From a virus, in IMG/VR virus record IMGVR_UViG_3300030385_002740, positions 1-48,562 of that record: a DNA stretch of 48,562 bases. One strand, written 5' to 3'. The position numbers and the translations under genes are program-made. Below are positions 1 to 32,918 of the stretch, piece after piece. The notes under the pieces were generated by a model. The model was not told where the DNA came from and did not search any database. It worked only from the letters and a program-made list of their open reading frames with translations. The first letter of the stretch is position 1. Each line of letters begins with the position of its first letter.

Positions 1-846
1 TCTTACGGCTCTATCGTGTCGTCAGCCTATGGCTCTAACAATCCTCTTAGCGGAATGCCCGCTTACGTTAGAGTTAATAAAATTAGCTTTGATGAAGGCG
101 CATGGCTTGGAAGCCAGACAAAACCGTATGAGTCTAGTGGGCAGGGGGTTAAGAACCTCCAATTAAAAATCACACCAGAGAGGTTCTTGGGTAATCAGGA
201 GCTTTTGAGTGGCTTGGACAGGCTCAGAGAGGGCGTTGACAGCGGTGCTGACGCATGGTCAGACCTTCGCAGCCAATCATATAGCATGCTTTTGGGCAAA
301 GTAGCGGAAGCCTTTGACATTAAAAAGGAAGACCCCGCCATGCTTGACAGCTATGGCAAGGGCGTAGGAGAACAGCTTCTTTTAGCCCGCAGACTTGTAG
401 AGGCTGGCACAAAGTTTGTCACCGTTCAGTATGGTGGATGGGACATGCATGGTAACATTTCACAGGCTCTCAAAGGCAGAGTTCCACCTATTGACAAAGC
501 TTTATCAGCATTTATCAATGACATATATGCCAAAGGCATGAATAAAGATGTTCTGCTAGTAGTAACTGGAGAGTTTGGCCGCACGTATAAGATAAATGGA
601 AATGGTGGGCGCGACCACTGGCCCAGACTTTCTCCACTCATGTTAGCCGGTGGAGACTTTCCAACCGGTCGATTTATTGGTGAGTCTACCAGTAAGGCAG
701 AAGAACCAAAAACAGACCCAATTAATCCACAAAATGTTACGGCCACCTTGCTTAAACATTTTGGTATAGACCAGCACACACAAAGACTTGATATGTCTGG
801 TCGTCCTAGATATTTTATAGAAACAAATACGGAATCGGTTTTGTAA
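1..846 (+). CDS. DUF1501 family protein, 5' end cut by window edge
   Basis: The reading frame is open from base 1, so the gene begins upstream; the GTG at 16 is only the first start-like codon inside the window. The visible 282 residues match the C-terminal part of DUF1501 proteins (alkaline phosphatase/sulfatase-like fold). Diagnostic stretches are GGWDMHG (about residue 146), VVTGEFGRT (about 187), GRDHWPRLSPLMLAGG, and a final segment of the form PQNVTATLLKHFGID. In bacteria these proteins are usually exported and are abundant in Planctomycetota, Verrucomicrobiota and Bacteroidota; their biochemical role is poorly known. The N-terminus, where a Tat signal often sits, is missing. A DUF1501 gene in a phage is unusual and may be host-derived. 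Family assignment is firm; function is unknown. Confidence 0.85.
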   Translation, partial: SYGSIVSSAYGSNNPLSGMPAYVRVNKISFDEGAWLGSQTKPYESSGQGVKNLQLKITPERFLGNQELLSGLDRLREGVDSGADAWSDLRSQSYSMLLGKVAEAFDIKKEDPAMLDSYGKGVGEQLLLARRLVEAGTKFVTVQYGGWDMHGNISQALKGRVPPIDKALSAFINDIYAKGMNKDVLLVVTGEFGRTYKINGNGGRDHWPRLSPLMLAGGDFPTGRFIGESTSKAEEPKTDPINPQNVTATLLKHFGIDQHTQRLDMSGRPRYFIETNTESVL

Positions 847-910
847 TTCTTTGGAGGGTTCCTTAACAAGGGAGGATTTCTATGGTTGCATACTTTGAAA
901 GGGGTGCAAC

Positions 911-1525
911 ATGCAACGTAGGCAATTCTTATATACCAGTTTGGCCAGTTTTTATGGCCTTAAAGCTTATGGACAAGAGGAATTATCAGAGAGCAGTTGC
1001 TCGTTCAGATGTGGAAATGTAGAACATCTGCAACGAAAAAATGCAAATAAATGGGGCAAAAAACATTTAAAGTATTTCTTTTTAAATAGAGACACAGAAG
1101 AATTGGCCCTGTCAAGCTGGGATTTACAGTTTAAGCTAGCTTTTAAATCTTGGTCTGATATTTGTGGCATGACTTTTAATCAAGTTGATAATATTTTTGA
1201 TTGCGATATTGTTTTTAGCGTTGGAAATAAACCATCAGAAGGCTTTGGTGAACCCGGAGACGTTTTAGCTTGGGCAGAACTACCCAGAAGCAAAAAGTTT
1301 AGTGGGCTTCTCCTGTCAAAATTTGATGTTGCCGAAAAGTGGACACTAAAGAAAGAGGATAACAGTTTTGTTTTGCGGGCTGTGGCTGCTCACGAAATAG
1401 GACACCTTTTAGGTCTAAGACATTCCGCAGACAAATCGGCGTTGATGTATCCTTACTATAATCCCAACACAGTAACGCCACAAAAAGACGATATTTCAAG
1501 AATTAGAAAACTATACGGAAAATAA
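911..1525 (+). CDS. Tat-exported matrixin-like zinc metalloprotease
   Basis: This is a 204-residue protein beginning MQRRQFLYTSLASFYGLKA, which looks like a twin-arginine signal (RRQFL followed by a short hydrophobic stretch). The zinc-binding motif HEIGHLLGLRH is at residues 161-171 (HExxHxxGxxH). A Met-turn, ALMYP, follows at 177-181, as in M10 (matrixin/serralysin) metzincins. There is no haemopexin or RTX region, so it is a minimal catalytic domain. An AAAGGGG Shine-Dalgarno lies just before the ATG. The gene follows the DUF1501 gene by 64 bp. Inferred role: an exported protease acting in the periplasm or envelope during infection, or a virion-associated protease. The Tat route would imply export of a folded protein through the host Tat system. 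Catalytic class is well supported; substrate is unknown. Confidence 0.85.
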   Translation: MQRRQFLYTSLASFYGLKAYGQEELSESSCSFRCGNVEHLQRKNANKWGKKHLKYFFLNRDTEELALSSWDLQFKLAFKSWSDICGMTFNQVDNIFDCDIVFSVGNKPSEGFGEPGDVLAWAELPRSKKFSGLLLSKFDVAEKWTLKKEDNSFVLRAVAAHEIGHLLGLRHSADKSALMYPYYNPNTVTPQKDDISRIRKLYGK

Positions 1526-2865: not shown

Positions 2866-3936
2866 ATGGATATAAATATAATAGCACCAATAAACAGCTT
2901 AGGGTATGGTGTAGTAGGGGCTAATGTGACGAAACACCTGTCTAAAATTGCAAATGTTGCCCTGTGGCCCATCGGAAACCCTGAAGCCTCCGTAGAGGAT
3001 ACTGCTGTACTGCGAGAGTGCGTGTCTAAGGCGGGTTTGCCTAACTTCTCTGCTCCATGTGTGAGAATTTGGCATCAGCACGATATGAGCCAATTTGTAG
3101 GAAGGGGGATGAGGGTAGGATTTCCTATTTTTGAGCTTGACCAGTTTACCCCAGTCGAAACACACCATCTTAAAAGCCTAGATAAAATTTTTGTTTGCTC
3201 ATCTTGGGCCAAGAAAATAGTTGTTGACGCTGTAGAAAAGAGTCACCACAGAGTTTCTGTCATACCTTTAGGAGTAGACCGGAATATATTTCCTGAAACA
3301 GATTCAAACCGAACAGAAACCGTTTTTCTAAATGTTGGAAAGTGGGAAATTAGAAAAGGGCATGACGTATTAGTTGAAGCGTTCAATCAAGCCTTTAATG
3401 AAGATGACGATGTAGAACTGTGGATGATGTGCCACAATCCTTTCTATGATGTAGAAGGAAACAGGGAGTGGCAGACCCTATATAAAAACTCTAAGCTGGG
3501 AGATAAGATTAGAATAATTCCCAGACAACAAACACAAAAAGAGGTGTATAATATTATGGCGCAGTCTGACTGCGGTATCTTTCCTAGTCGTGCAGAGGGG
3601 TGGAATTTAGAAGCTCTTGAAATGATGTCATGTGGGAAACAGGTTATTGCCACAAATTATTCCGCCCACACAGAATTTTGTAACGGCTCCAATTCCCTTC
3701 TAGTTGACATCGACTCCACGGAAGATGCGTTTGATGGAAAATGGTTTAAAGGTCAGGGAAAATGGGCGAAGATTGACGATAAGCAAATTTCAGATATATC
3801 AAATCATATGAGAGAGATATATGAGCAAAAAGGGGCGGGAAAAGACCTAATAAATAAAGAGGGGATAAGCACCGCTGAAAAATTTTCTTGGGAAAATACA
3901 GCAAGCGAAATAGTCTCTAGTCTAACTCTCGGATAG
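2866..3936 (+). CDS. GT4-like glycosyltransferase (GT-B fold)
   Basis: This is a 356-residue retaining-type GT-B glycosyltransferase. Residues 158-165, GKWEIRKG, form the usual start of the C-terminal Rossmann domain (the G-x-x-x-x-x-KG loop). AEGWNLEALEMMSCG at 243-257 is the E-x7-E donor-binding motif of GT4. A short glycine-rich N-terminal loop (GYGVVGAN, 13-20) is also present. The ATG directly follows the TGA of the exostosin-like gene, so the two are translationally coupled and probably act on the same glycan. This pair is physically separate from the main glycan block beginning at 28425 and has its own promoter, so it may act at a different time. Family assignment is strong; substrates are unknown. 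Confidence 0.88.
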   Translation: MDINIIAPINSLGYGVVGANVTKHLSKIANVALWPIGNPEASVEDTAVLRECVSKAGLPNFSAPCVRIWHQHDMSQFVGRGMRVGFPIFELDQFTPVETHHLKSLDKIFVCSSWAKKIVVDAVEKSHHRVSVIPLGVDRNIFPETDSNRTETVFLNVGKWEIRKGHDVLVEAFNQAFNEDDDVELWMMCHNPFYDVEGNREWQTLYKNSKLGDKIRIIPRQQTQKEVYNIMAQSDCGIFPSRAEGWNLEALEMMSCGKQVIATNYSAHTEFCNGSNSLLVDIDSTEDAFDGKWFKGQGKWAKIDDKQISDISNHMREIYEQKGAGKDLINKEGISTAEKFSWENTASEIVSSLTLG

Positions 3937-3947
3937 GAGCAAGCCGG

Positions 3948-4340
3948 TTGTCACTAAGATATAAAGTTATAGTTAATTTGGGCATCGTAGCCCACAATCT
4001 AGAAGATGACAACCCCGTCAACTTTAAAATACTAACAGTAGGAAAGGGTGGCGTCCCCAAATTGGTTCTCTATGATGACCAAAAAGTAGAAGATGTCCTA
4101 AGCCGGATTGTTAAGAAATATCTAGAAACCCACCCAGAATGGCCCGAAAAACACTTTTGCTCTGTGGTCAACAGTAAGGGGTCTATCTATTTAAATTATA
4201 TTACCATTATTCCTGATAACATAAAAAATAAATCTGGAAGCTGGGTAACAATGTTTAATGTTCTAGGCAAAGAAGAGCAAATAGACTTTAATTACAGTGA
4301 AATTATAAAACATATCAATTTGGCATTGACTGGAAGATAA
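3948..4340 (+). CDS. hypothetical protein (130 aa, TTG start)
   Basis: I do not recognise this protein. The start is TTG at 3948, supported by TAGGAG at 3934-3939 with 8-bp spacing; no ATG lies near. The predicted order is a short beta strand pair at the N-terminus (YKVIVNLGIVAHN), an acidic loop, then a helix (KVEDVLSRIVKKYLETHP) and more strands. The arrangement loosely recalls a Nudix-like fold, but the GX5EX7REUXEEXGU signature is absent, so no catalytic call is justified. It sits in a run of three orphans between the glycosyltransferase pair and the sigma factor. Confidence 0.65.
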   Translation: MSLRYKVIVNLGIVAHNLEDDNPVNFKILTVGKGGVPKLVLYDDQKVEDVLSRIVKKYLETHPEWPEKHFCSVVNSKGSIYLNYITIIPDNIKNKSGSWVTMFNVLGKEEQIDFNYSEIIKHINLALTGR

Positions 4341-21623: not shown

Positions 21624-22634
21624 ATGCTAATAACCTACATAAGAAGCTCATCTTATAACAATTATTCGTTCTGCCAGCAACAATATTACATTAATTATGT
21701 ACTAGGCTATCCGTCTGTGTCGGGCAAGAAAGCCCAGATGGGAACTATAGTACACAAAGTAATGGAGTGTTTAGCTAGGTCAAATCAAACACTTAAACTT
21801 AACAAAAGAATATTTACCGACGACGTTTTGGGAAAAATAAGTGTTGGCAGTAAAAAGTTGCAATCAGATGATTTTGTTAATGAGTTGGTAGATAAAAGCT
21901 TTAATCATTATACTTCTAACTGTAAACATGAGTACAGTAAGAAGGATTATAACGATTGCAACAAATGGACTTGGATGGGTTTAGACTACAATAACGGCCA
22001 ATTTGACCCAAGAAATTTAAACATAATTGCAGCCGAACCTCATTTTGATATAAAAATAGATGAGCCGTGGGCAAAATACAGCTACAGCCTCCCAGATGGC
22101 TCCAAACTGACCGGAACGCTTGCTATCAAGGGGACTATTGACCTTGTGACGGAGCCGTCCAGCGGCGTCCTAGAGGTCATAGATTGGAAAACAGGTCGCC
22201 GCATTGATTGGGCTACGGGAGAAGAAAAAGACTACGATAAACTTCTCAGTGACCCACAGCTTTTGCTGTACAATTATGCAATATCAAAGATGTTTCCAGA
22301 GTATGAACAATCCATAACGTCTATATTTTACATTAAAGACGGCGGGCCTTTTAGTTTATGCTTTGATGAATCTGACCAGAAATCGTTTCTAGAAAAACTT
22401 AGGACTAGATTTTCCCAAGTAAAGAACAACCAAAATCCTAAAATGATTTCCCGCAACCAAAGCAATTGGAAATGCACCAAGCTGTGTGATTATTTTAAGA
22501 ATAACTGGCCCGGAACAGACACCAACATGTGTAAGTATATACATGAAAAGATAGAAGCTGAAGGAATTGACAAAACAACAGAAGATTGTACAAGAGAAGG
22601 CTTTAGTATAGGTTATTATGATGCCCCCGGTTAA
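21624..22634 (+). CDS. Cas4/RecB-type PD-(D/E)XK nuclease with probable Fe-S cluster
   Basis: This 336-residue exonuclease-type protein has the RecB-family active site: H44 (GTIVHKVME), D173 (KGTIDLV), D187 and K189 (EVIDWKTG), and the Q motif DPQLLLYNYA (Q212). One N-terminal cysteine (C17) and three C-terminal ones (C284, C288, C303) match the four-cysteine 4Fe-4S pattern of Cas4 and AddB. No CRISPR or cas genes are near, so it is probably a phage recombination or DNA-processing nuclease paired with the RecA-like protein. Its end overlaps the polymerase start by 17 bp. Confidence 0.82.
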   Translation: MLITYIRSSSYNNYSFCQQQYYINYVLGYPSVSGKKAQMGTIVHKVMECLARSNQTLKLNKRIFTDDVLGKISVGSKKLQSDDFVNELVDKSFNHYTSNCKHEYSKKDYNDCNKWTWMGLDYNNGQFDPRNLNIIAAEPHFDIKIDEPWAKYSYSLPDGSKLTGTLAIKGTIDLVTEPSSGVLEVIDWKTGRRIDWATGEEKDYDKLLSDPQLLLYNYAISKMFPEYEQSITSIFYIKDGGPFSLCFDESDQKSFLEKLRTRFSQVKNNQNPKMISRNQSNWKCTKLCDYFKNNWPGTDTNMCKYIHEKIEAEGIDKTTEDCTREGFSIGYYDAPG

Positions 22635-24534
22635 TTGGACTCCCCTTCATTCACATACGCATTACAGCCTACTTGACGGCCTTAGTCAGCCAAGTCAAGT
22701 GGCGCAAAGATGCCATGAGCTTGGCTATGACTCTTGTGCTATTACCGACCACGGAACTATTTCTGGATGTATTTCTTTTACAAAAGCCATGAAAGAAAAG
22801 AACATTAAGCCCATTCTGGGATGTGAGTTTTATTTAACTCCTGATGTAAGCATTAAAGATAAAGACAATAGAGCCTTAAGCCACTTGGTTGTTTTAGCAA
22901 AAAACAAAGAAGGCTGGAAAAAACTAATTCAGGCCACGTCAAAAAGTAACGACCCAGATAATTTTTACTTTAAACCAAGGCTCGACCTAGACACTCTTAG
23001 TAATTTTTCGGATGGAAGTTTGGTTTCCTTTAGCGGCCATTTGGGTAGCGACTTAGCCAATATCATTTTTTCTGATTGGAAGCAAGGATATAATTCCAAT
23101 AGTTATGAAATGGCTAAAAGCTTTGTCGATGAAAACTGGAAGAAAAAGACCTGTGACCTAGCACGTTTATATCAAGACATATTCGGGAAAGATAATTTCT
23201 TTCTAGAGATACAGCTTATTGACCATGAAAATTCGCCAGCCTCCCGTCTTGTTGGTGAAAAACTAAGAGAAATTGGGAAAGAGCTAAAAATTCCCTGTGT
23301 GGCTACGGCTGACTCCCACTACCCCACAAAAAAGGACGCCCCTGACCAAAGGGTTTTGCTTTGTTCTGCAATGAAAACAACCTACAAGAAAGTCAAAAGA
23401 AAATTAGACGCTGGCGAAGACGTAGGGCTTTCCAGCTTTTTTAAATCCTTTAATTATCACATACCGTCGCCCGAAGAAATGTCTGCCCTACACACAGAAG
23501 AAGAGCTTAAAAATTCCACGCTAATCTCAGATATGTGCGAGGAATATGAAATCTTAGGCGCGCCTATATTGCCTCCTTTTCCTTGCCCAACAAGTCCAGC
23601 CGAACATCTTCGGCAATTGTGCAGGAATGGATGGCGCACAAAATTAATAGAAACAAACAAATTAACGAACAATGCTTTAGAAAACGAATATCTCAATAGG
23701 ATTAAACACGAATTATCTGTCCTGCAAGATGCTGGCCTATCTAGCTATTTTCTTATTGTGTCTGATATTGTAGACTATGTTCGCTTAGAGGGTTGGCTTC
23801 CGGGGCCGGGAAGAGGCTCTGCTGCGGGATGCTTGGTTTCCTACCTAATAGGAATTACTCAAGTTGACCCAATTGAACATGGTCTTCTGTTCCAAAGATT
23901 TTATAATACAGGAAGAAATACAGACGAACATATTTCCCTGCCAGATATTGACATTGATGTTCCAGCAAGCAAAAGAGAGCTAGTTATTGAATACATGAAG
24001 GAAAAATATGGGCACGCCAAGGTTGGCCAAATGTTAACATTTGGTCGCCTGCAAGGAAGAAGCGCACTCAAGGAAGTGCTAAGGGTTCATGACGCATGTT
24101 CTTTTGAAGAAATGAACATGATAACAAAAAGCCTTCCTCACGAACAAGAAATCTCTGACCAGCTACAGGAAATGGACAACCCTTCTGTAATCAAATGGGC
24201 TTTAATTAATCAGCCAGAATCCCTCAAAGATTATTGTCAAATGGACGACGAAGGCAATACTAGCGGCCCTTACTCCAAATATTTTGACCAAGCAATGAGA
24301 ATCGAAGGAACCTACAAGTCTCAGGGAAAGCATGCCGCTGGAGTAGTAATCTCGCCGGAAGAGCTTGGAGAAGTTTGCCCAATGGTCAAAGAAACAAATG
24401 GCAGCAATAAAATTGCCGGTCTGGAAATGTCTGATTTAGAAGCTATGGGTCATGTTAAATTCGATATATTAGGAGTAAACTTACTAGATAAAATTATGGA
24501 TATTCAAATTTCAATAGGGGAAGACAATGAATGA
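22618..24534 (+). CDS. DNA polymerase III alpha (DnaE), N-terminal half: PHP + palm
   Basis: This 638-residue family C polymerase fragment is the first part of a split DnaE. The PHP domain starts at once (H11, H13 in LHSHTHYS; TDHG at 43-46; ADSHY near 231-235), with metal-site residues kept. The palm includes PGPGRGSAAG (395-404), catalytic PDIDID (D443, D445) and VKFDILG with the third Asp, D616. The frame then stops 22 residues later, before the fingers. The rest of the polymerase is encoded at 25942-27495. There is no intein sequence at the end. The two proteins must associate to give a working polymerase. Confidence 0.9.
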   Translation: MMPPVNWTPLHSHTHYSLLDGLSQPSQVAQRCHELGYDSCAITDHGTISGCISFTKAMKEKNIKPILGCEFYLTPDVSIKDKDNRALSHLVVLAKNKEGWKKLIQATSKSNDPDNFYFKPRLDLDTLSNFSDGSLVSFSGHLGSDLANIIFSDWKQGYNSNSYEMAKSFVDENWKKKTCDLARLYQDIFGKDNFFLEIQLIDHENSPASRLVGEKLREIGKELKIPCVATADSHYPTKKDAPDQRVLLCSAMKTTYKKVKRKLDAGEDVGLSSFFKSFNYHIPSPEEMSALHTEEELKNSTLISDMCEEYEILGAPILPPFPCPTSPAEHLRQLCRNGWRTKLIETNKLTNNALENEYLNRIKHELSVLQDAGLSSYFLIVSDIVDYVRLEGWLPGPGRGSAAGCLVSYLIGITQVDPIEHGLLFQRFYNTGRNTDEHISLPDIDIDVPASKRELVIEYMKEKYGHAKVGQMLTFGRLQGRSALKEVLRVHDACSFEEMNMITKSLPHEQEISDQLQEMDNPSVIKWALINQPESLKDYCQMDDEGNTSGPYSKYFDQAMRIEGTYKSQGKHAAGVVISPEELGEVCPMVKETNGSNKIAGLEMSDLEAMGHVKFDILGVNLLDKIMDIQISIGEDNE

Positions 24535-24769
24535 TATAACACACCCTTCAATGCAAGAATACAAGCAGGTTTTGTTTGATGGGTGTTCTATTGACTATAG
24601 GAATAAACTTACTGTTTGCGCAATTAGTGATTATTATCGAGGTAAAGTTAAAAGGCTTGTCTATCAAGTCCATTGTAGTGATTCTAGATTTGGTTTTAGC
24701 CAGTTCTACAGAACTATCAATGAAGCCTTGGAAAAATTCTTTGAAATAAGAGGCAATTTAAAAAGATGA
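24527..24769 (+). CDS. hypothetical protein (80 aa) between dnaE halves
   Basis: I do not recognise this protein. It is a small mixed-charge protein with a strand-rich core (KLTVCAISDYYRGKVKRLVY, QVHCSDSRFGFSQFYRT) and a C-terminal helix (NEALEKFFEIRGNLKR). It overlaps the N-terminal polymerase gene by 8 bp and the next nuclease by ATGA, so it is translated in the same operon. It could bridge the two polymerase parts or be an unrelated insertion. Confidence 0.6.
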   Translation: MNDITHPSMQEYKQVLFDGCSIDYRNKLTVCAISDYYRGKVKRLVYQVHCSDSRFGFSQFYRTINEALEKFFEIRGNLKR

Positions 24770-25251
24770 GTTTTAAGCTTGGCAATAAAGGCGAAAGCTT
24801 TGCTAAAAAACTTTTCAAGAAGTTTGGCGTTGATTGTCAAATCAATGAAGATTATGACAAAAGATACGACTACGACTTGATTTGTAAACATGGAAAGAAA
24901 GATTTTACCTGTGAAGTTAAATATGACTTCATGGCTCATAAAACTGGAAACTTGGCCATTGAAGTTAACAATTGCAGAGCCAACAAGCCTAGCGGCATTA
25001 ATGTAACAAAAGCTGACATATGGGCGCACATAATTCCAGATGATGGCAAAATGACAATGTGGATAGTGCGTGTGTCTGAATTGAAAAAGTTTATCAAGAA
25101 AAATGAACCTCTCAGAAAAGTAACTCAGGCTGGAGATGGCAATGCCGACCTGTTTTTATATAAGGCAGAGGCCATATTAGAACCTCTATTTTTCAGGGTA
25201 GACAATATCCAGAAAAACAAATTTGTAAAGCACCTAAAGAGTATCATTTAG
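24766..25251 (+). CDS. PD-(D/E)XK-type nuclease (phage resolvase/repair-like)
   Basis: This 161-residue protein has a restriction-endonuclease-fold active site: YDYDLICKHGKKDFTCEVKY around 42-63, giving D, then E-x-K (CEVK). HKTGNLAIEVNN follows and INVTKADIWAHI lies around residue 88. This pattern is common in phage nucleases annotated as Holliday-junction resolvase-like or repair enzymes. It is one of three genes inserted between the two halves of the polymerase. If it is or was a mobile nuclease, it may explain the split. Active-site call is moderate; biological role is open. Confidence 0.65.
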   Translation: MSFKLGNKGESFAKKLFKKFGVDCQINEDYDKRYDYDLICKHGKKDFTCEVKYDFMAHKTGNLAIEVNNCRANKPSGINVTKADIWAHIIPDDGKMTMWIVRVSELKKFIKKNEPLRKVTQAGDGNADLFLYKAEAILEPLFFRVDNIQKNKFVKHLKSII

Positions 25252-25259
25252 GAGACATC

Positions 25260-25937
25260 ATGGCTTTAAATATAAGAGATATTGTTGTTTTTGACTTTGA
25301 AACAGGTTCGCGGAACCCGCTAAAGACTCAACCGACACAAATTGCCGCAGTAGTAATACACGGCAAGAGTCTTAAAATTAAAAACAATGGGACTTTCAAT
25401 TCAGAAATAAGACCAATTTTGGATGACGAGGCGGCAGTAAAGCTGGACTTAGACCCCCTTGAAGACGAAGCCCTTGATATTACCAGAAAAACCAGAAAAG
25501 CCCTAGCAAAAGCTCCAACACCCAAGTTTGTTTGGAAGAAGTTTGCTAAGTTTGTTTCGATGCATAACTGGAAGGGTACTTCTTGGTTTAACCCTATTGC
25601 TGCGGGATATAATATAAACAATTTTGATATGCCAATTGTTGAAAGAATGTGTCAAGAATATGGGCCTGTGGAGAAGAAAAGTGGGCGACAAGGTATATTT
25701 CATCCAATATATAAAATTGATTTGATGGACACCGTGTTTATGTGGATGGAAAACAATCCTGACGTTAGGTCTATTAGCATGGACTCAATGCGAGACCTTA
25801 TGAATATTGATAAAACTAATGCTCATGATGCCCTACAAGACTGTTTAGATACAGCACAAATTTTAGTTAAATTTATGAAGTTGCACAGGAGCATATCTCC
25901 TAAAGTGCAGTTTGAGAAAGCTTTTGCTAACGAGTAA
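25260..25937 (+). CDS. DnaQ-like DEDDh 3'-5' exonuclease
   Basis: This 225-residue proofreading-type exonuclease has the DEDDh residues: D12 and E14 in VFDFETG, the aspartate in GYNINNFDMPIVE (about 119-131), and H/D in NAHDALQDCLDTAQIL (about 193-208). It would remove misincorporated nucleotides, as epsilon does for E. coli alpha. It lies between the two halves of the DnaE gene, so the operon encodes N-half, orphan, nuclease, exonuclease and C-half in order. The region after the active site has no obvious clamp-binding motif. Function with this polymerase is inferred from position. Confidence 0.88.
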   Translation: MALNIRDIVVFDFETGSRNPLKTQPTQIAAVVIHGKSLKIKNNGTFNSEIRPILDDEAAVKLDLDPLEDEALDITRKTRKALAKAPTPKFVWKKFAKFVSMHNWKGTSWFNPIAAGYNINNFDMPIVERMCQEYGPVEKKSGRQGIFHPIYKIDLMDTVFMWMENNPDVRSISMDSMRDLMNIDKTNAHDALQDCLDTAQILVKFMKLHRSISPKVQFEKAFANE

Positions 25938-25941
25938 AGAT

Positions 25942-27495
25942 ATGGACTTTGGAAACTACGATTGCGAACAAACTTGGAGCCTAATTTGCGAGGGAAGAAC
26001 CAAGGGGGTTTTTCAGCTAGAAAGCAACTTAGGAAAATCTTGGGCAAAAAGAGTTAAGCCCAGAAATATCGAAGAGCTTGCCGCATTAATTTCAATAATT
26101 AGGCCGGGATGCCTAAAAGCTATCACGAAGGGCAAGTCTATGACTCAGCACTACGTGGATAGAAAAAGTGGTAAGGATGAAATAGTATATCTCCATGAGT
26201 CTCTGGAGCCAATATTAAAAAGCACCCAAGGGGTTTTAATTTACCAAGAACAGTCTATGCAAATAGCTCAGGTTATAGCTGGATTTAATCTTCAAAAAGC
26301 CGATGACCTTCGCAAAGCCATTGGGAAGAAAAAGGCTGGCTTAATGTCAAAAGTAAAAAAGGATTTTTTGGAGGGGGCATCCAGCAAAGGAATTGTTGAT
26401 GACGAAACAGCAGAAGAGATATTTAGCTGGATTGAAAAGTCAAACCGCTACGCATTCAATAAGTCTCATGGGGTAAGCTATGCTATTTGTGCATACTGGT
26501 CTGCTTATTGCAAAACTCACAATCCTATAAATTTTTATTGGAGCTATCTTTATCACGCAGATGGAAAACAAGACCCCCAAACAGAAATAAGAGAATTAAT
26601 TTCTGACGCAAAGATACACGACATAAATGTGTTTCCTCCAACGGTTAAAAATCCCACGACCAAGTTTAGTATTAATGGCAAAAGTATTAACTTTGGCTTG
26701 CAGGATATAAAGTTTATAGGAGGCAGCCAAGTTAAAAAGTTTTTTGCTGCTGCAAAAGAAACAGAAGAGACCCTCGGCAAAAGCGTAGGGGAGCTAGACT
26801 GGCACACCTTTTTGATTAATGTTGTAGATAAAATTGGCATGACTACTTCGTCAGCACTGTTGTCTGTGGGCGCTATGGGTCACACCAGCGTTGCTCGCTC
26901 TAAAATGCTTTATGACCTAGAAACGTGGGATTCTCTTACCACAAAGGAGAAGGACTGGGTTAGGGAAAACTGTTCTTCTTGCACAACCCTAATAGAGTCC
27001 CTGTCACTCCTGTCACCAACCAGAAAGGAGGGTGGCGGAACTTTTACTTCCAAGAGAAAAGAAGCGGTTCTTGATTTATTGTCGTTATTAAAAAACCCCC
27101 CGTATTCTGTTGAAGACGACCCTCAATTTATAGCCAGCAAAGAAGAAGAATATTTGGGCGTGAGCATTACCTATTCTAAGGTTGATTCCTGTGACATTGG
27201 CGCTGCTGATTCTACATGCAAAGAAGTAATGAATGGCAAAAAGGGAAAAATGTCATTGGCGGTGGAAATAAAAAGAGCAACAGAGTGGACTATTAAAAAG
27301 GGAAACTCAAAAGGAAAAAAGATGGCCTTTTTAACCATTGCAGATGGAAGCTGTGAATTAGATAATGTTGTAATATTTCCAGAAGCTTGGGAAGAGTATA
27401 AGAGCCTCATTAGCGAAAAAAACACTTTGTTAATTTTTGGAGAATCGCAAAAAAACAAAGAGGGCTTAATTGTCCAAAAGGCAAAACAAATTTAG
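25942..27495 (+). CDS. DNA polymerase III alpha (DnaE), C-terminal half: fingers, HhH, OB fold
   Basis: ATG 25942 is preferred to the in-frame TTG at 25912. The 517 residues continue where the first half stops: KGVFQLES at 21-28 begins the fingers (bacterial DnaE has GVFQFES here), then ALISIIRPGCL, VLIYQEQSMQIA and YAFNKSHGVSYA. A C-terminal OB-like region follows (MAFLTIADGSCELDNVVIFP). The cyanobacterial DnaE split-intein site lies at the motif corresponding to NKSH, which is unbroken here, so this is a different break. The two halves total 1155 residues, near the 1160 of E. coli DnaE. No beta-clamp gene is seen in the window. Confidence 0.9.
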   Translation: MDFGNYDCEQTWSLICEGRTKGVFQLESNLGKSWAKRVKPRNIEELAALISIIRPGCLKAITKGKSMTQHYVDRKSGKDEIVYLHESLEPILKSTQGVLIYQEQSMQIAQVIAGFNLQKADDLRKAIGKKKAGLMSKVKKDFLEGASSKGIVDDETAEEIFSWIEKSNRYAFNKSHGVSYAICAYWSAYCKTHNPINFYWSYLYHADGKQDPQTEIRELISDAKIHDINVFPPTVKNPTTKFSINGKSINFGLQDIKFIGGSQVKKFFAAAKETEETLGKSVGELDWHTFLINVVDKIGMTTSSALLSVGAMGHTSVARSKMLYDLETWDSLTTKEKDWVRENCSSCTTLIESLSLLSPTRKEGGGTFTSKRKEAVLDLLSLLKNPPYSVEDDPQFIASKEEEYLGVSITYSKVDSCDIGAADSTCKEVMNGKKGKMSLAVEIKRATEWTIKKGNSKGKKMAFLTIADGSCELDNVVIFPEAWEEYKSLISEKNTLLIFGESQKNKEGLIVQKAKQI

Positions 27496-28064: not shown

Positions 28065-28432
28065 TGAATTCTTGCTCTTTTGTTGGCAGATTTGCACAAG
28101 ACCCAGAGCTTTTTACTGTTGATGGAACCCACGTTGTAAAGTTTACGTTGGCCATTAATGAATATAGACGCTCCAAGGATGGCAATAAAACAAAACAGGT
28201 TGATTACCTAGACTTTGAAGCTTGGGATAGTGGAGCAACAACTATCGCTAAGTATTGCAAGCGAGGAGATGAACTAGCAGTATCAGCGTCTGCCCGCCAG
28301 CATAAATGGAGTGACGCAGATGGAAATAGGCACTCACTAATTAAATTTAGAGTGAACAGCTTTAATCTTTTCTCTAACAGGAATAGCTTCAATAGAGAAA
28401 AAGAATTGGCTGAATCAGGAGCAAATGAATAA
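28064..28432 (+). CDS. ssb: single-stranded DNA-binding protein
   Basis: This 122-residue OB-fold SSB begins MNSCSFVGRFAQDPEL and has the usual strands: VVKFTLAINEYRRSKDG, YLDFEAWDSGATTIAKY and KRGDELAVSASARQHKW. It coats ssDNA at the fork and during recombination. The C-terminus (AESGANE) lacks the acidic DDDIPF-type tip that recruits partners in bacterial SSBs, so interactions may be mediated differently. It is the last replication gene; the sugar block starts inside its final codons (8-bp overlap). Confidence 0.9.
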   Translation: MNSCSFVGRFAQDPELFTVDGTHVVKFTLAINEYRRSKDGNKTKQVDYLDFEAWDSGATTIAKYCKRGDELAVSASARQHKWSDADGNRHSLIKFRVNSFNLFSNRNSFNREKELAESGANE

Positions 28433-30086
28433 GAAAAAAATATTATTATGCAATGAGGCATCTTTTCTAAATACCGGATACGCTATCTATGGCAGAGAAG
28501 TCATGGGTAGGCTTTTTGCCACAGGAAAATATGACTTAGCAGAATTATCGGTTTATGGCTCTGAGATTGACCCAAGGAGAAAGCAGATACCTTGGAAATA
28601 TTATCCTAACCACCCCAATCCCAACATCAAGGAAGAGGTTGATGAGTTTAATTCACAGCAAGTTAATGCGTTTGGAAGCTGGAGATTTGAAGATGTATGT
28701 CTAGATTTTCGTCCAGATATAGTTGTAGACATCAGAGATTTCTGGATGATGGAGTTTGTAGAACGCTCTCCATTTAGAAGGATGTTTAATTGGGCCATTA
28801 TGCCCACAGTGGACGCTGCACCACAAAGCGAACAGTGGCTGTGTACATTTTCTAATGCGGATACTGTTTTCAATTATTCAGAATTTGGAGAAAGAGTCCT
28901 AAAAGAACAAAGCGGTGGAGCCATCAATTGTTTGGGCGTTGCGTCACCCTCTGCTGCCGACGTTTTTGTGCCAGTTCCAGACAAAAAGGCACACAAACAA
29001 AGTATGGGTCTAGGCCCAGATTCTTTAATAATCGGTACGGTTATGAGGAATCAAAGAAGAAAGCTTTTTCCAGACCTTTTTTATTCGTTTAGAGAATTCT
29101 TAAATCAAACCCAGTCAGACAACACTTATCTGTATTGCCACACCAGCTATCCTGATATTGGGTGGGATATACCAAGCCTACTAAACGAGCATGGAATTTC
29201 TAGTAAAGTAGTGTTTACTTATTCCTGTGAAAAATGTAAATATGTATATCCAGCTTTCTTTGAGGGCGCTTTAAGCGTTTGCCCCAGATGCAACTTTTTA
29301 GCTTCCAAGCCTTCTAATGTGCATTCAAACATAGACAACAAAGACCTAGCTAGAATATACAATCTTTTTGATTTATATGTTCAGTATTCAAACAGCGAAG
29401 GTTTTGGGATTCCTCAAGTAGAAGCGGCGGCTTGCGGCGTCCCCTTTATGTCTGTTAACTATTCTGCTATGGAAAGCGTTTTGGCCAATCTTGAGGGGGA
29501 GCCAATAAAAGTAAAAGCCCTGTATAAAGAGCTTGAAACTGGATGCATGAGAGCCATACCAGATAATGAGGATTTTATTGAGAAATTAATTAATTTTTCC
29601 AATCTTCCAGAAGCAGTACGATTAAAAAGGGGCTTTCAAACAAGACAACTTTTTGAAAAATATTATACTTGGGACAAAACAGCAAAAAGGTGGGAAGACC
29701 TTTTTGATTCTATGCCAACACAAGACCCGAAAGACACTTGGGATTCACCCCCTAGAATTGTAAACGTGTCCAGCGAAGTTCCGGCCTATCTTCCTAATAG
29801 AGAATACATAGACTGGCTCTTTACAAATGTTCTAGGTGAGCCTGAAAAAATAGGCTCCTATACCTACTCAAGAATGCTTAGAGATTTAGACAACAAAAAC
29901 TTCGTAAGAGGTATGGGTAGCTTTTATTTTAATGAGGACTCTTGGTCTCATACTCGCCCAGAATGGGAAAAATTTGGAAAAGAGGAAGCCTACCACGAAC
30001 TTTCTAGAATAGTTGATACAAAAAACTACTGGGAAAAGGTAAGATGTGGTATTATACAAAAACCAAAGCCAAGTTGGATACAATAA
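28425..30086 (+). CDS. large GT-B glycosyltransferase with inserted zinc ribbon
   Basis: This is a 553-residue GT4-type glycosyltransferase. The N-terminal Rossmann part (KKILLCNEASFLNTGYAIYG) resembles donor/acceptor domains of GT-B enzymes. In the C-terminal domain a zinc ribbon (C268, C271, C286, C289 in CEKCKYVYP and SVCPRCNF) is inserted shortly before the E-x7-E donor loop, EGFGIPQVEAAACG (325-338). About 150 extra residues follow the catalytic domain. The insertion is unusual for this class. It opens the glycan block, so it may act first on the acceptor, perhaps a virion protein. The GT call is firm; substrates are unknown. Confidence 0.82.
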   Translation: MNKKKILLCNEASFLNTGYAIYGREVMGRLFATGKYDLAELSVYGSEIDPRRKQIPWKYYPNHPNPNIKEEVDEFNSQQVNAFGSWRFEDVCLDFRPDIVVDIRDFWMMEFVERSPFRRMFNWAIMPTVDAAPQSEQWLCTFSNADTVFNYSEFGERVLKEQSGGAINCLGVASPSAADVFVPVPDKKAHKQSMGLGPDSLIIGTVMRNQRRKLFPDLFYSFREFLNQTQSDNTYLYCHTSYPDIGWDIPSLLNEHGISSKVVFTYSCEKCKYVYPAFFEGALSVCPRCNFLASKPSNVHSNIDNKDLARIYNLFDLYVQYSNSEGFGIPQVEAAACGVPFMSVNYSAMESVLANLEGEPIKVKALYKELETGCMRAIPDNEDFIEKLINFSNLPEAVRLKRGFQTRQLFEKYYTWDKTAKRWEDLFDSMPTQDPKDTWDSPPRIVNVSSEVPAYLPNREYIDWLFTNVLGEPEKIGSYTYSRMLRDLDNKNFVRGMGSFYFNEDSWSHTRPEWEKFGKEEAYHELSRIVDTKNYWEKVRCGIIQKPKPSWIQ

Positions 30087-30095
30087 GGAAAAAAC

Positions 30096-30791
30096 ATGGA
30101 AGGTTGGAGACATCATCTTTCTAGGCTCACTTATTCAGAACATACAGATGTTTATGAGTTTGGTGTTTATACTGGAAACTCGGTCAATTGGATTAATCAG
30201 TCACTCGCCGCCGCTGGAAAAACGGCTAGAAAAATTTTTGGCTTTGATTCTTTTTGCGGATTACCAAAAGAAGCGGATAAAGAAAAGGAGCTTTCTGATT
30301 CTAGGAAGTTTCAATGGAAACTGAAAGATGAGTTTCAATGGAAGTTTGGGGATTTTAATTCACAAGAACATTTTGGTGTTACAAGTGTGCAAGAGGTAAT
30401 GAACTCTCTTCGTGCTTTTGTTGAACCAACTCTTGAAAACGGTGTTGCTTTAGAATTGATTCCGGGTTATTTTTCTGACTCCTTAACGGATGACATTGTT
30501 GAAAAATACGACATGAGACCCGCTTGTTATGTTGACTTAGACGCAGACCTTTATTCGTCAACTACTCAGGCTCTAGATTTTCTTTTTAGAAACGAATTAA
30601 TACAAAGAAATACAATTTTTGGATACGATGATTGGGGAGGAACTCCGGGGTGGAAGACTATGGAAGATGGAGCCAGCAAAGCCCACGTAGACATAGCCGA
30701 TAAATATAATGTTGATTTTCAATTGATTGCAGTAACTGGGGGTAGCTACCCACACGTTCACACAGTGTTTGAAGTAAGGTCAATTGGATGA
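30096..30791 (+). CDS. class I SAM methyltransferase, TylF/MycF-like
   Basis: The 231-residue protein has EFGVYTGNSVNWI (SAM-binding motif I region, about 21-33), IFGFDSFCGLP (47-57) and PACYVDLDADLYSSTTQAL (about 161-179), the hallmarks of the macrocin-O-methyltransferase (TylF) family. Those enzymes O-methylate sugars; related ones are common in surface-polysaccharide clusters. It is expected to cap or modify a sugar hydroxyl. A good SD (AAGGAAAA) precedes the ATG, and the end overlaps the next GT gene by 4 bp. Confidence 0.8.
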   Translation: MEGWRHHLSRLTYSEHTDVYEFGVYTGNSVNWINQSLAAAGKTARKIFGFDSFCGLPKEADKEKELSDSRKFQWKLKDEFQWKFGDFNSQEHFGVTSVQEVMNSLRAFVEPTLENGVALELIPGYFSDSLTDDIVEKYDMRPACYVDLDADLYSSTTQALDFLFRNELIQRNTIFGYDDWGGTPGWKTMEDGASKAHVDIADKYNVDFQLIAVTGGSYPHVHTVFEVRSIG

Positions 30792-31921
30792 AAGTTTTAT
30801 ACATAGGACACTATAAAGAAGGAACTGGCTGGGGACATGCGGCCATCGACTACATTCTAGCAATGGATGCTGCCGGAATAGACGTTGTTTGCAGGTCAAT
30901 AAATTTCAACGACAAGCCCGCAGAAATTCCCAGACGAATTCAAGAGCTTGAAGAAAAAAGCCTAAAGGGGTGTGATGTGTGCATACAGCACATTTTGCCC
31001 CACTATATGGACTATAATGGAAACTTTAAAAAGAACATTGCCCTCTATGCCACAGAGACAGACTCTTTTGAGAGGACAAATTGGCCAGAGCGCATTAATT
31101 TTATGGATGAGGCTTGGGTCATAAACGAACAAATGGTTGAGGCTTCCAAAAGAAGCGGCGTAAATATTCCCATTAAGGTAGTTCCCCATGCTTGCGATAC
31201 AAGCAAATTCAATAAAACATATAGCAAGTTTGAAATACCCCAATTACAAGACACATTCATATTTTATTTTATTGGGGAGCTTATAAGAAGGAAAAACTTG
31301 GTAGCGCTCATAAAGGCGTTTCATATAGAGTTTGATACGAACGAACCAGTTTCCTTAGTAGTAAAAGCTAACAAGTCGGGAATGGATGAAGACGAGTGTT
31401 TTAATCATATAAAAGAAATATGTATCCAAGTAAAAACCAATCTTAAGTTATATCCCACTCCTGACGATTATAAAAAAGAGGTTATAATTGCTCAGCGCCT
31501 TTCGGAAGAAGATATGTGCAGACTTCATGTCACTGGAGACTGTTTTGTTGCCCCTAGTTTTGGAGAAGCGTGGTGCATACCGGCATTTGACGCTATGGGC
31601 TTTGGAAGCACCCCAATATGTACAGATACGGGCGGCATGAAGGACTTTCTTAAAGAAGGTGGAGGAACATTAGTAAAAGCCTACCCGGAGCCAGCCTTTG
31701 GAATGACAGAAACCTTCCAAGACCTTTATACGGGATATGAAGACTGGCACAATATAGACATAAGAGAATTGCAAAAAGCGATGAGACGCATGTACAACCT
31801 TAGTTTAGAAAACTCCCCAGAATATCTTTCAATAAAAAAGACTGGGTTGGAAAATGTTGATAAATATTCTTATAAAGCAGTAGGCGAAACAATAAAGAAA
31901 GCCCTAGAAGATGCCAATTAG
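30788..31921 (+). CDS. GT4-like glycosyltransferase
   Basis: This is a 377-residue GT-B enzyme. The start MKVLYIGHYKEGTGWGHAAI is typical, with the glycine-rich loop after strand 1. The C-terminal domain starts at FYFIGELIRRKNLVALI (about 157-173). The donor loop is SFGEAWCIPAFDAMGFG, where the second acidic residue of E-x7-E is Asp. It probably adds a sugar from an NDP donor, in line with the flanking sugar-modifying genes. The donor cannot be deduced. Confidence 0.82.
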   Translation: MKVLYIGHYKEGTGWGHAAIDYILAMDAAGIDVVCRSINFNDKPAEIPRRIQELEEKSLKGCDVCIQHILPHYMDYNGNFKKNIALYATETDSFERTNWPERINFMDEAWVINEQMVEASKRSGVNIPIKVVPHACDTSKFNKTYSKFEIPQLQDTFIFYFIGELIRRKNLVALIKAFHIEFDTNEPVSLVVKANKSGMDEDECFNHIKEICIQVKTNLKLYPTPDDYKKEVIIAQRLSEEDMCRLHVTGDCFVAPSFGEAWCIPAFDAMGFGSTPICTDTGGMKDFLKEGGGTLVKAYPEPAFGMTETFQDLYTGYEDWHNIDIRELQKAMRRMYNLSLENSPEYLSIKKTGLENVDKYSYKAVGETIKKALEDAN

Positions 31922-32918
31922 TCCAGTTTCCTATATAACAAGAGCGGCAACACTTAAAGATAATGAGCCTCTCAACATTCTAACCTTCGTAACGCATGAA
32001 AGATATGAGCCAAACCTGTGCAAAACAGGCCATAACTTCTATGCATATACCGGGGAAGGGATTAGGGACTGGAATACTAACTATGCCCCAATACCAGACA
32101 ACTATTGTATTTTAGATAAAGGTCTAGGGGGAAAACAAATCCCGCTACATTTGGATATAGACCTTATAATATCACAAAATATTGTAGCACACTACGATTT
32201 AGCTCAAGGGATATCTCAATATTTAAACATTCCAATCATTAATATTCACCACACACTACCCCCTCCCGCATGGAAAAAAGAAGAGCTACAATCTTTATCT
32301 AGTAAAGTTGGCGTTTTTGATGTCTATATTACAGACCACAATCTTAAGGTTTGGAATATAAATCCAAAAAACTCTAAAGTAATATATCATGGAATTGATT
32401 CTAACTTTTGGAAGCCTGCAAAAAAAACCAAAAGAGGAAGCTACGCCCTGTCCGTAGTAAACGATTGGATAAATAGAGACTGGTGCTGTGGCTATAGCGT
32501 GTGGAAAGAGGCCACGGCAGGCATACCAGTCAAAGCAATTGGCGATACTCCGGGCCTATCTCAGCCAGCAAGCTCGTTGGAAGACTTGAGAGACAATTAT
32601 AATTCTTGCGGCCTGTTTGTTAATACCTCCACATACTCCCCCATCCCAATGTCTCTCCTTGAGGCCATGTCTTGTGGCTGCGCCGTAGTGTCAACCGCCA
32701 CCTGTGCAATACCAGAGATTATTGAAAATGGTGTAAATGGCTTTGCCACCAACGATATTTCAGAAATGAAAGAATATATTTCAGCAATATTAAAAGATGA
32801 AAAACTAAGAGATAGTCTAGGAAAAGAAGCACGAAAAACTATTTTAAATAAATTCTCTATCAAAAGATTTGCTGACGAATGGAATAAAATATTCTATGAG
32901 GTAGCAAACAATGCATGA
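31911..32918 (+). CDS. GT4-like glycosyltransferase
   Basis: This 335-residue GT-B protein overlaps the end of the previous gene by 11 bp. It has a substrate-domain segment INIHHTLPPPAW (111-122), an inter-domain VIYHGIDSNFW (157-167) and the donor loop SPIPMSLLEAMSCG (243-256), where the first Glu of E-x7-E is replaced by Pro-Ile-Pro. The loop is followed by PEIIENGVNG, the common end of GT4 donor sites. It is shorter than most of its class. It probably acts on the same glycan as its neighbours. Confidence 0.8.
   Translation: MPISPVSYITRAATLKDNEPLNILTFVTHERYEPNLCKTGHNFYAYTGEGIRDWNTNYAPIPDNYCILDKGLGGKQIPLHLDIDLIISQNIVAHYDLAQGISQYLNIPIINIHHTLPPPAWKKEELQSLSSKVGVFDVYITDHNLKVWNINPKNSKVIYHGIDSNFWKPAKKTKRGSYALSVVNDWINRDWCCGYSVWKEATAGIPVKAIGDTPGLSQPASSLEDLRDNYNSCGLFVNTSTYSPIPMSLLEAMSCGCAVVSTATCAIPEIIENGVNGFATNDISEMKEYISAILKDEKLRDSLGKEARKTILNKFSIKRFADEWNKIFYEVANNA

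What the first reader, a model, noticed from the sequence alone, without database searches (positions are those of the whole stretch)
22618..27495. DnaE replicase encoded as two proteins, broken between palm and fingers
The first gene ends 22 residues after the third catalytic Asp (D616). The second begins 20 residues before the GVFQLES fingers motif. The two add up to 1155 residues, close to an intact bacterial DnaE, and nothing seems lost or duplicated. No intein-like sequence is at either end. The break differs from the cyanobacterial DnaE split-intein site, whose NKSH motif is unbroken here. Split polymerase genes with intervening mobile nucleases are known for T4-type family B enzymes (Aeromonas phage gene 43), so gene fission by an invader is a plausible origin.
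Basis: partly seen in the sequence, partly recalled or inferred. Interest (0 to 1): 0.8.

Follow-up and report, generated by a model that had tools for sequence, protein, structure and literature searches.

The report
Phage replicase built from two proteins
A large group of uncultured phages encodes its DNA-copying enzyme (DnaE type) as two separate proteins, always with the gene for its probable proofreading nuclease in between, so an enzyme that is one chain in nearly all bacteria has become an ancient, stable multi-part machine.

Summary
DnaE lies in two complete, complementary genes: 22618-24534 (PHP, palm, thumb; 638 aa) and 25942-27495 (fingers, HhH, OB; 517 aa). The break corresponds to E. 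coli alpha residues 577/586. Nothing is lost or duplicated; I found no intein or intron. It is not a local oddity: in 321 of 321 relatives that hold all three genes (about 200 distinct at 99% identity) the same break is present with a DEDDh exonuclease gene between the halves. They form one clade with 100% support; no unsplit member was found. Catalytic residues of palm and exonuclease are invariant in 133 complete loci. Sixteen contigs of 105-244 kb hold no family A or B polymerase. Best reading: one ancient fission produced an obligate two-chain family C replicase co-expressed with its proofreader. Rossellomorea phage phiT1 is broken at the same joint, probably independently. A different split Pol III (minimal, with a PolB) is published, so this is a new variant of a known kind. 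Physical assembly was not tested.

The parts
22618..24534 (+). DnaE N-terminal half (PHP, palm, thumb), 638 aa; palm Asp D443, D445, D616
   Evidence: PF02811 + PF07733; phrog_405 42-617; AF2 pLDDT 90.2; maps to E. coli alpha 1..577; catalytic Asp invariant in 133/133
24527..24769 (+). 80-aa protein of unknown function in the slot between N half and exonuclease; lineage-specific family
   Evidence: no Pfam or PHROG match; family of 85 of the small ORFs found in this slot, replaced by unrelated small proteins in other subclades
24766..25251 (+). 161-aa protein, probably a PD-(D/E)XK-like nuclease (pattern read by eye), not conserved at this position
   Evidence: weak phrog_13596 / phrog_6927, unknown function; 12 members in 133 complete loci
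25260..25937 (+). DEDDh 3'-5' exonuclease (DnaQ-like; probable proofreader), the constant gene between the halves
   Evidence: PF00929 4.8e-12; phrog_192 DNA polymerase exonuclease subunit 1.3e-21; D12 E14 D123 H189 D194 in 133/133; between the halves in 321/321 loci
25942..27495 (+). DnaE C-terminal half (fingers, HhH, OB), 517 aa from ATG 25942; no tau-binding C-terminal domain
   Evidence: PF17657 + OB; phrog_405 627-1060; AF2 pLDDT 87.0; maps to E. coli alpha 586..1073
21624..22634 (+). PD-(D/E)XK exonuclease upstream (overlaps the N half start); conserved neighbour
   Evidence: PF12705 1.5e-18; upstream of the N half in L001-L015
28064..28432 (+). single-stranded DNA-binding protein, conserved downstream neighbour
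   Evidence: PF00436 3.2e-19; downstream of the C half in L002, L007, L009-L015

Best explanation
The window encodes a family C (DnaE-type) replicase made of two chains. The N chain carries PHP, palm with all three catalytic Asp, and thumb; the C chain carries fingers, HhH and OB parts. The gene of a DEDDh proofreading exonuclease lies between them in one gene cluster. The break arose once, long ago, in the ancestor of this phage clade, at the linker between palm and fingers, and has been kept ever since. Shown: two complementary complete halves, each predicted to fold on its own, invariant active sites, fixed gene order N - exonuclease - C, single clade, and no other polymerase of family A or B in large relatives. 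Inferred: the two chains bind each other through the native palm/fingers interface to form the active site, without splicing; the exonuclease is their proofreader; translation of exonuclease and C chain is coupled (their ends overlap or abut). The cause of the original break is not known.
For: Complementary halves by Pfam, PHROG, PDB sequence and fold mapping. Linker length sum 42 against 42-55 in unsplit enzymes. 321/321 relatives split with the exonuclease between, about 200 distinct at 99%. One clade, 100%. D443, D445, D616 and the five DEDDh residues in 133/133. One palm and one fingers gene per contig in 15 of 16 contigs of 105-244 kb, no PF00136, no PF00476. Exonuclease stop and C start mostly between -25 and +8 bases. 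Distances of N and C halves correlate, r 0.84 over 595 pairs, as expected if they are inherited together. No Rfam intron in the window region or in ten other loci. Precedent: Aeromonas phage 25 gp43A and gp43B co-purify with polymerase activity (PMC2988022).
Against: Binding of the two chains was not tested; only single-chain models could be made. The contigs are fragments or of unknown completeness, and the window itself is only 48.6 kb, so a further polymerase in its genome is not excluded. Large relatives show no beta clamp (PF00712), the C chain has no conserved canonical clamp motif and no tau-binding domain, so how it reaches processivity is unclear. The N/C distance correlation is also expected from linkage alone.
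Confidence: 0.86

Rival explanations
1. The exonuclease is part of the joint: it binds both halves and is needed to assemble them, so the working enzyme is an obligate heterotrimer N - exonuclease - C and the gene order reflects this.
For: Exonuclease gene between the halves in 321/321 loci although other genes there come and go; its active site never decays; exonuclease and C distances correlate 0.82; a conserved short C-terminal tail (KFEKAF-like).
Against: Gene order can be kept for co-expression alone; phiT1 has the same break with no exonuclease between; no complex was modelled.
Confidence: 0.2
2. A mobile nuclease invaded a once intact dnaE gene at this joint, broke it and was later lost or replaced by the exonuclease gene.
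For: Endonuclease VII / HNH-like genes sit between exonuclease and C half in L009, L210 and L261 (the L210 one judged by eye); L266 shows a LAGLIDADG gene inside a second break of the N half; precedent in Aeromonas phage 25 (PMC2988022).
Against: No nuclease is conserved at the break; those present are in few branches and not in the deep ones. PMC2988022 itself notes that an endonuclease may have invaded an already split gene.
Confidence: 0.3
3. The two halves are joined after transcription or translation (trans-splicing intron or split intein), so the mature enzyme is one chain.
For: Split inteins in DnaE exist in cyanobacteria, and intein-like sequences occur in other viral dnaE contigs such as L016 and L359.
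Against: No intein domain in either half, no Rfam intron, linker length is already complete without extra residues, each half has its own start and stop.
Confidence: 0.03
4. Sequencing, assembly or frameshift artefact, or a decaying pseudogene.
For: Metagenome contig, incomplete.
Against: Same arrangement in 321 loci from many assemblies; active sites invariant; three genes lie between the halves in the window.
Confidence: 0.01

Closest known systems
Bacterial DNA polymerase III alpha (DnaE), E. coli and Thermus aquaticus
   Same: All core parts in the same order, three palm Asp, PHP ligands in most members, OB fold; fold Z 39 and 21
   Different: Two chains instead of one; no tau-binding C-terminal domain; about 30% identity; exonuclease gene between the halves
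Split minimal Pol III alpha of group 2.2 jumbo phages (PMC7824862)
   Same: A phage family C polymerase encoded as two proteins thought to reconstitute one enzyme
   Different: That one is a minimal catalytic core, divided between NTP-binding and Mg-binding/template-binding parts, its genes lie far apart, and it accompanies a family B polymerase; here the enzyme is full-length, broken between palm and fingers, genes close together with the exonuclease between, and no family B polymerase was found
Rossellomorea phage phiT1 gp20 / gp18 (PV767480)
   Same: DnaE broken at the same joint: gp20 ends ...KFDLLGLKTLKVIQNSVDQINQGVAV, gp18 starts MFDILDIPLDDAKTYKLLCDGNTSGVFQLES
   Different: A 49-aa gene, not the exonuclease, lies between; its sequence is closer to unsplit enzymes (699 bits) than to this clade (497 bits) and 79 of 80 of its viral neighbours are unsplit, so probably an independent break (AU test p 0.36 does not exclude common origin)
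Aeromonas phage 25 gp43A / gp43B (PMC2988022)
   Same: Phage replicase in two chains that co-purify and polymerise
   Different: Family B polymerase; seg-type homing endonuclease at the break
Cyanobacterial split-intein DnaE
   Same: DnaE encoded by two genes
   Different: Break just before NKSH (own knowledge), inteins rejoin the chains; here NKSH is intact, the break is earlier and no intein is present
PolC
   Same: Family C polymerase with a DnaQ-type exonuclease closely tied to it
   Different: PolC has the exonuclease inside its PHP domain on one chain (PMC3919608); here it is a separate protein encoded between the halves

Membership tests
Family C DNA polymerase, DnaE type | PHP + palm with three catalytic Asp + fingers + HhH + OB in that order | tested here: met
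   Pfam, fold mapping, D443 D445 D616 invariant; HhH only weakly by sequence
Family C DNA polymerase, DnaE type | single polypeptide | tested here: not met
   two ORFs in the window and in 321/321 relatives
Family C DNA polymerase, DnaE1 of E. coli type | C-terminal tau-binding domain | tested here: not met
   C half ends at the position of E. coli residue 1073 of 1160
DnaQ-like DEDDh exonuclease (product of 25260-25937) | D, E, D, H, D active site | tested here: met
   D12 E14 D123 H189 D194 in 133/133; PF00929
DnaQ-like proofreader bound to the polymerase | physical binding to the polymerase | not testable with these tools
   no complex prediction available
Cyanobacterial split-intein DnaE | break directly before the NKSH motif | tested here: not met
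   NKSH intact in the C half; break maps to E. coli 577/586
Cyanobacterial split-intein DnaE | intein halves at the broken ends | tested here: not met
   no Hint/intein match in either half; linker complete without extra residues
Split minimal Pol III of jumbo phages (PMC7824862) | minimal core lacking the other Pol III domains, accompanied by a family B polymerase, genes far apart | tested here: not met
   PHP and OB present; no PF00136 in 16 contigs of 105-244 kb; halves about 1.4 kb apart in the window
Homing-endonuclease-split phage polymerase (Aeromonas phage 25 type) | homing endonuclease gene at the break | tested here: not met
   conserved gene at the break is a DEDDh exonuclease; nucleases only in few branches
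PolC | exonuclease domain inserted in PHP on the same chain | tested here: not met
   PHP continuous 10-199 in the N half, exonuclease is a separate ORF

The most novel reading that the evidence does not exclude
An obligate heterotrimeric family C replicase, N chain - exonuclease - C chain, in which proofreader and polymerase halves must assemble together, so that a polymerase lacking its proofreader cannot form. The fixed position of the exonuclease gene between the halves would be the trace of this.
Probability: 0.15. Interest if true: 0.8.

Novelty: new variant of a known kind. Interest (0 to 1): 0.6.

Why it matters
Replicative polymerases are among the most conserved single-chain enzymes. 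A full-length DnaE that has lived as two chains across a large, diverse phage clade, with an active region divided between them, gives a natural system for asking how a replicase tolerates a cut between palm and fingers, whether assembly is regulated, and how proofreading is tied to it. A second, probably independent break at the same joint in a cultured phage (phiT1) suggests that the palm/fingers linker is a natural break point. It also warns annotators that such halves are one enzyme.

Tried and rejected
Unsplit member of the clade: sought by alignment-driven scans of viral contigs, one genome scan and one DNA pattern for an unbroken palm-fingers linker; all clade members split, unsplit enzymes at about 41% identity or less. 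These scans keep only the best 80 loci each, so weaker relatives were not all seen. Intron: Rfam found none. Intein at the break: none. Apparent close 'phage' records from human faeces (MT837297, MT835501, MT836213) have single-ORF dnaE and look like bacterial chromosome pieces (followed by an ORF that looks like phosphofructokinase, by eye), not unsplit phages. Shared ancestry of the small ORFs between N half and exonuclease: profile comparison found none. phiT1 as a member of the clade: tree puts it outside, AU test undecided. Own sliding clamp: PF00712 absent; PF02916 search uninformative because no control rang. Cultured exonuclease relatives: none in the phage collection at E 1e-5. The literature search covers open-licence papers only; a 2011 survey of viral replicases that I recall was not found there.

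Full report
Check of the observation. The window has a 638-aa ORF at 22618-24534 and a second ORF ending at 27495. The second is listed from TTG 25912, which overlaps the preceding gene; ATG 25942 is the likelier start and gives 517 aa. Pfam finds PHP and the complete DNA_pol3_alpha domain in the first, fingers, OB and a weak HhH in the second, and no intein domain in either. On the full-length phage DnaE profile phrog_405 the two cover 42-617 and 627-1060. Against solved structures they align to E. coli alpha up to residue 563 and from residue 592 by sequence. Each half modelled alone by AlphaFold2 is confident (90.2 and 87.0) and aligns to E. coli alpha 1..577 (Z 39.0, 3.1 A, 568 residues) and 586..1073 (Z 21.3). 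The number of residues between KFDxLG and FQLES is 42 in the window, inside the range of unsplit enzymes, 42-55. So the break is clean and nothing is lost or doubled.

What lies between. Three genes: an 80-aa protein, a 161-aa protein that looks to me like a PD-(D/E)XK nuclease but matches only PHROGs of unknown function, and a 225-aa DEDDh exonuclease (PF00929; phrog_192, DNA polymerase exonuclease subunit).

How general it is. Searches of viral contigs and bacterial genome contigs with single proteins and alignments gave 341 loci of this clade. In all 321 that hold the three genes, DnaE is split and the order is N half - exonuclease - C half on one strand; none is unsplit. By exonuclease sequence these are 200 distinct at 99% and 157 at 95%. 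In contrast, nearly all bacterial DnaE hits in the genome scan whose two halves were both held were unsplit, and so were 79 of 80 viral relatives of phage phiT1, taken as a comparison group.

One origin. In a tree of 74 polymerases, 35 representatives of the split clade form one side of a branch with 100% support and length 0.84. No unsplit enzyme falls inside. The closest unsplit sequences are similarly distant bacterial and phage DnaEs, so the donor cannot be named.

Function is under selection. In 133 complete loci the three palm Asp and the five DEDDh residues are present without exception. The PHP metal ligands are kept in about 127; they are lost in one subclade (L063, L210, L224, L238, L239, L261) whose N half is about 100 residues shorter, which suggests that the separate exonuclease suffices for proofreading there (inference). 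Fifteen of sixteen large contigs (105-244 kb) have exactly one palm and one fingers gene; the sixteenth has two sets. None has a family B or A polymerase. I conclude that the two chains together are the replicase.

How it probably works. Shown: two chains, each able to fold as predicted, active-site palm on one and fingers on the other. Inferred: they associate through the palm/fingers surface that is covalent in ordinary DnaE, as the two chains of the split gp43 of Aeromonas phage 25 do (they co-purify and are active, PMC2988022). The exonuclease stop and the C-half start overlap or abut in most loci (-25 to +8 bases), which suggests translational coupling and balanced amounts. Many members have an extra N-terminal stretch on the C chain with a CGC motif (51 of 133), absent from the unsplit linkers examined; it sits exactly at the break and may help docking or bind metal (inference).

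Was it an invader? The conserved element at the break is a proofreader, not a mobile nuclease. The slot between N half and exonuclease holds small unrelated proteins in different subclades, and now and then other genes: uracil-DNA glycosylase, a glutamate dehydrogenase-like gene, a glycosyltransferase-like gene, the 161-aa protein. Between exonuclease and C half a methyltransferase-like gene or endonuclease VII / HNH-like genes occur in a few branches. So the junction accepts insertions, but no nuclease is old. L266 nevertheless shows the proposed process at another place: its N half is broken again just before PDIDID, with a LAGLIDADG gene in the gap.

Comparison with known systems. It is a DnaE by content but fails the single-chain criterion. 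It is not the cyanobacterial split-intein DnaE (site and inteins differ). A split Pol III has been published in group 2.2 jumbo phages (PMC7824862), but that is a minimal core divided between NTP-binding and Mg-binding parts, with distant genes and a family B polymerase beside it. Rossellomorea phage phiT1 is broken at the same joint as the window; it is closer to unsplit enzymes (699 against 497 bits) and lies outside the clade in the tree, though an AU test does not exclude joining it (p 0.36). I call this a probable second, independent break at the same joint.

Limits. The window is a 48.6-kb fragment. The search tools may leave out records very near the window and keep only the best 80 loci per scan. 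Large relatives show no beta clamp and the C chain has no conserved canonical clamp motif and no tau-binding domain, so processivity is unexplained. The literature library holds open-licence papers only.

Verdict. New variant of a known kind; interest 0.6.

Noticed in passing
L266:1942-4935: A member of the clade with DnaE in three pieces: the N half is broken again before PDIDID by a 283-aa LAGLIDADG gene (3230-4081); the piece after it starts with about 90-100 residues that look like a degraded copy of the preceding palm stretch.
   Followed up: partly
L354:2029-5859 and L402:9827-13319: Other viral DnaEs broken inside the palm before PDIDxD, where the second ORF begins with a degenerate copy of the palm stretch that ends the first; possibly the palm-internal split of PMC7824862.
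   Followed up: partly
L266:2-1945: The upstream PD-(D/E)XK exonuclease gene appears to carry an intein with a LAGLIDADG domain (inserted in VIDWK...TGRRLDW).
   Followed up: partly
L016:3306-9440 (329-kb contig): DnaE spread over three ORFs with Hint / intein-splicing matches, possibly split inteins in phage dnaE.
   Followed up: partly
L359:10211-14139: dnaE interrupted in the fingers region by at least one intein-like sequence.
   Followed up: no
L210, L224, L238, L239, L261, L063 (N halves): One subclade has a shortened PHP domain that lost its metal ligands while the DEDDh exonuclease stays intact.
   Followed up: partly
L011, L014, L138 and others, start of C half: N-terminal extension with a CGC motif (YxFxCGCxF) on the C chain, in 51 of 133 loci, absent from the unsplit linkers examined.
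   Followed up: partly
L005:8652-9863: A full glutamate dehydrogenase-like gene (PF00208/PF02812) sits between the N half and the exonuclease, next to a uracil-DNA glycosylase gene.
   Followed up: no
contig of L135 / L507 (IMGVR_UViG_3300024358_000009): 206-kb contig with two sets of split DnaE (near 53 kb and 199 kb): two copies or a joined assembly.
   Followed up: no
window 2866-3936, 28425-30086, 30788-31921, 31911-32918: At least four glycosyltransferase genes (phrog_2170) on both sides of the replication genes.
   Followed up: no
MT837297, MT835501, MT836213 (phage collection): Records labelled as bacteriophage from faeces look like bacterial chromosome pieces with an ordinary single-ORF dnaE.
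   Followed up: partly
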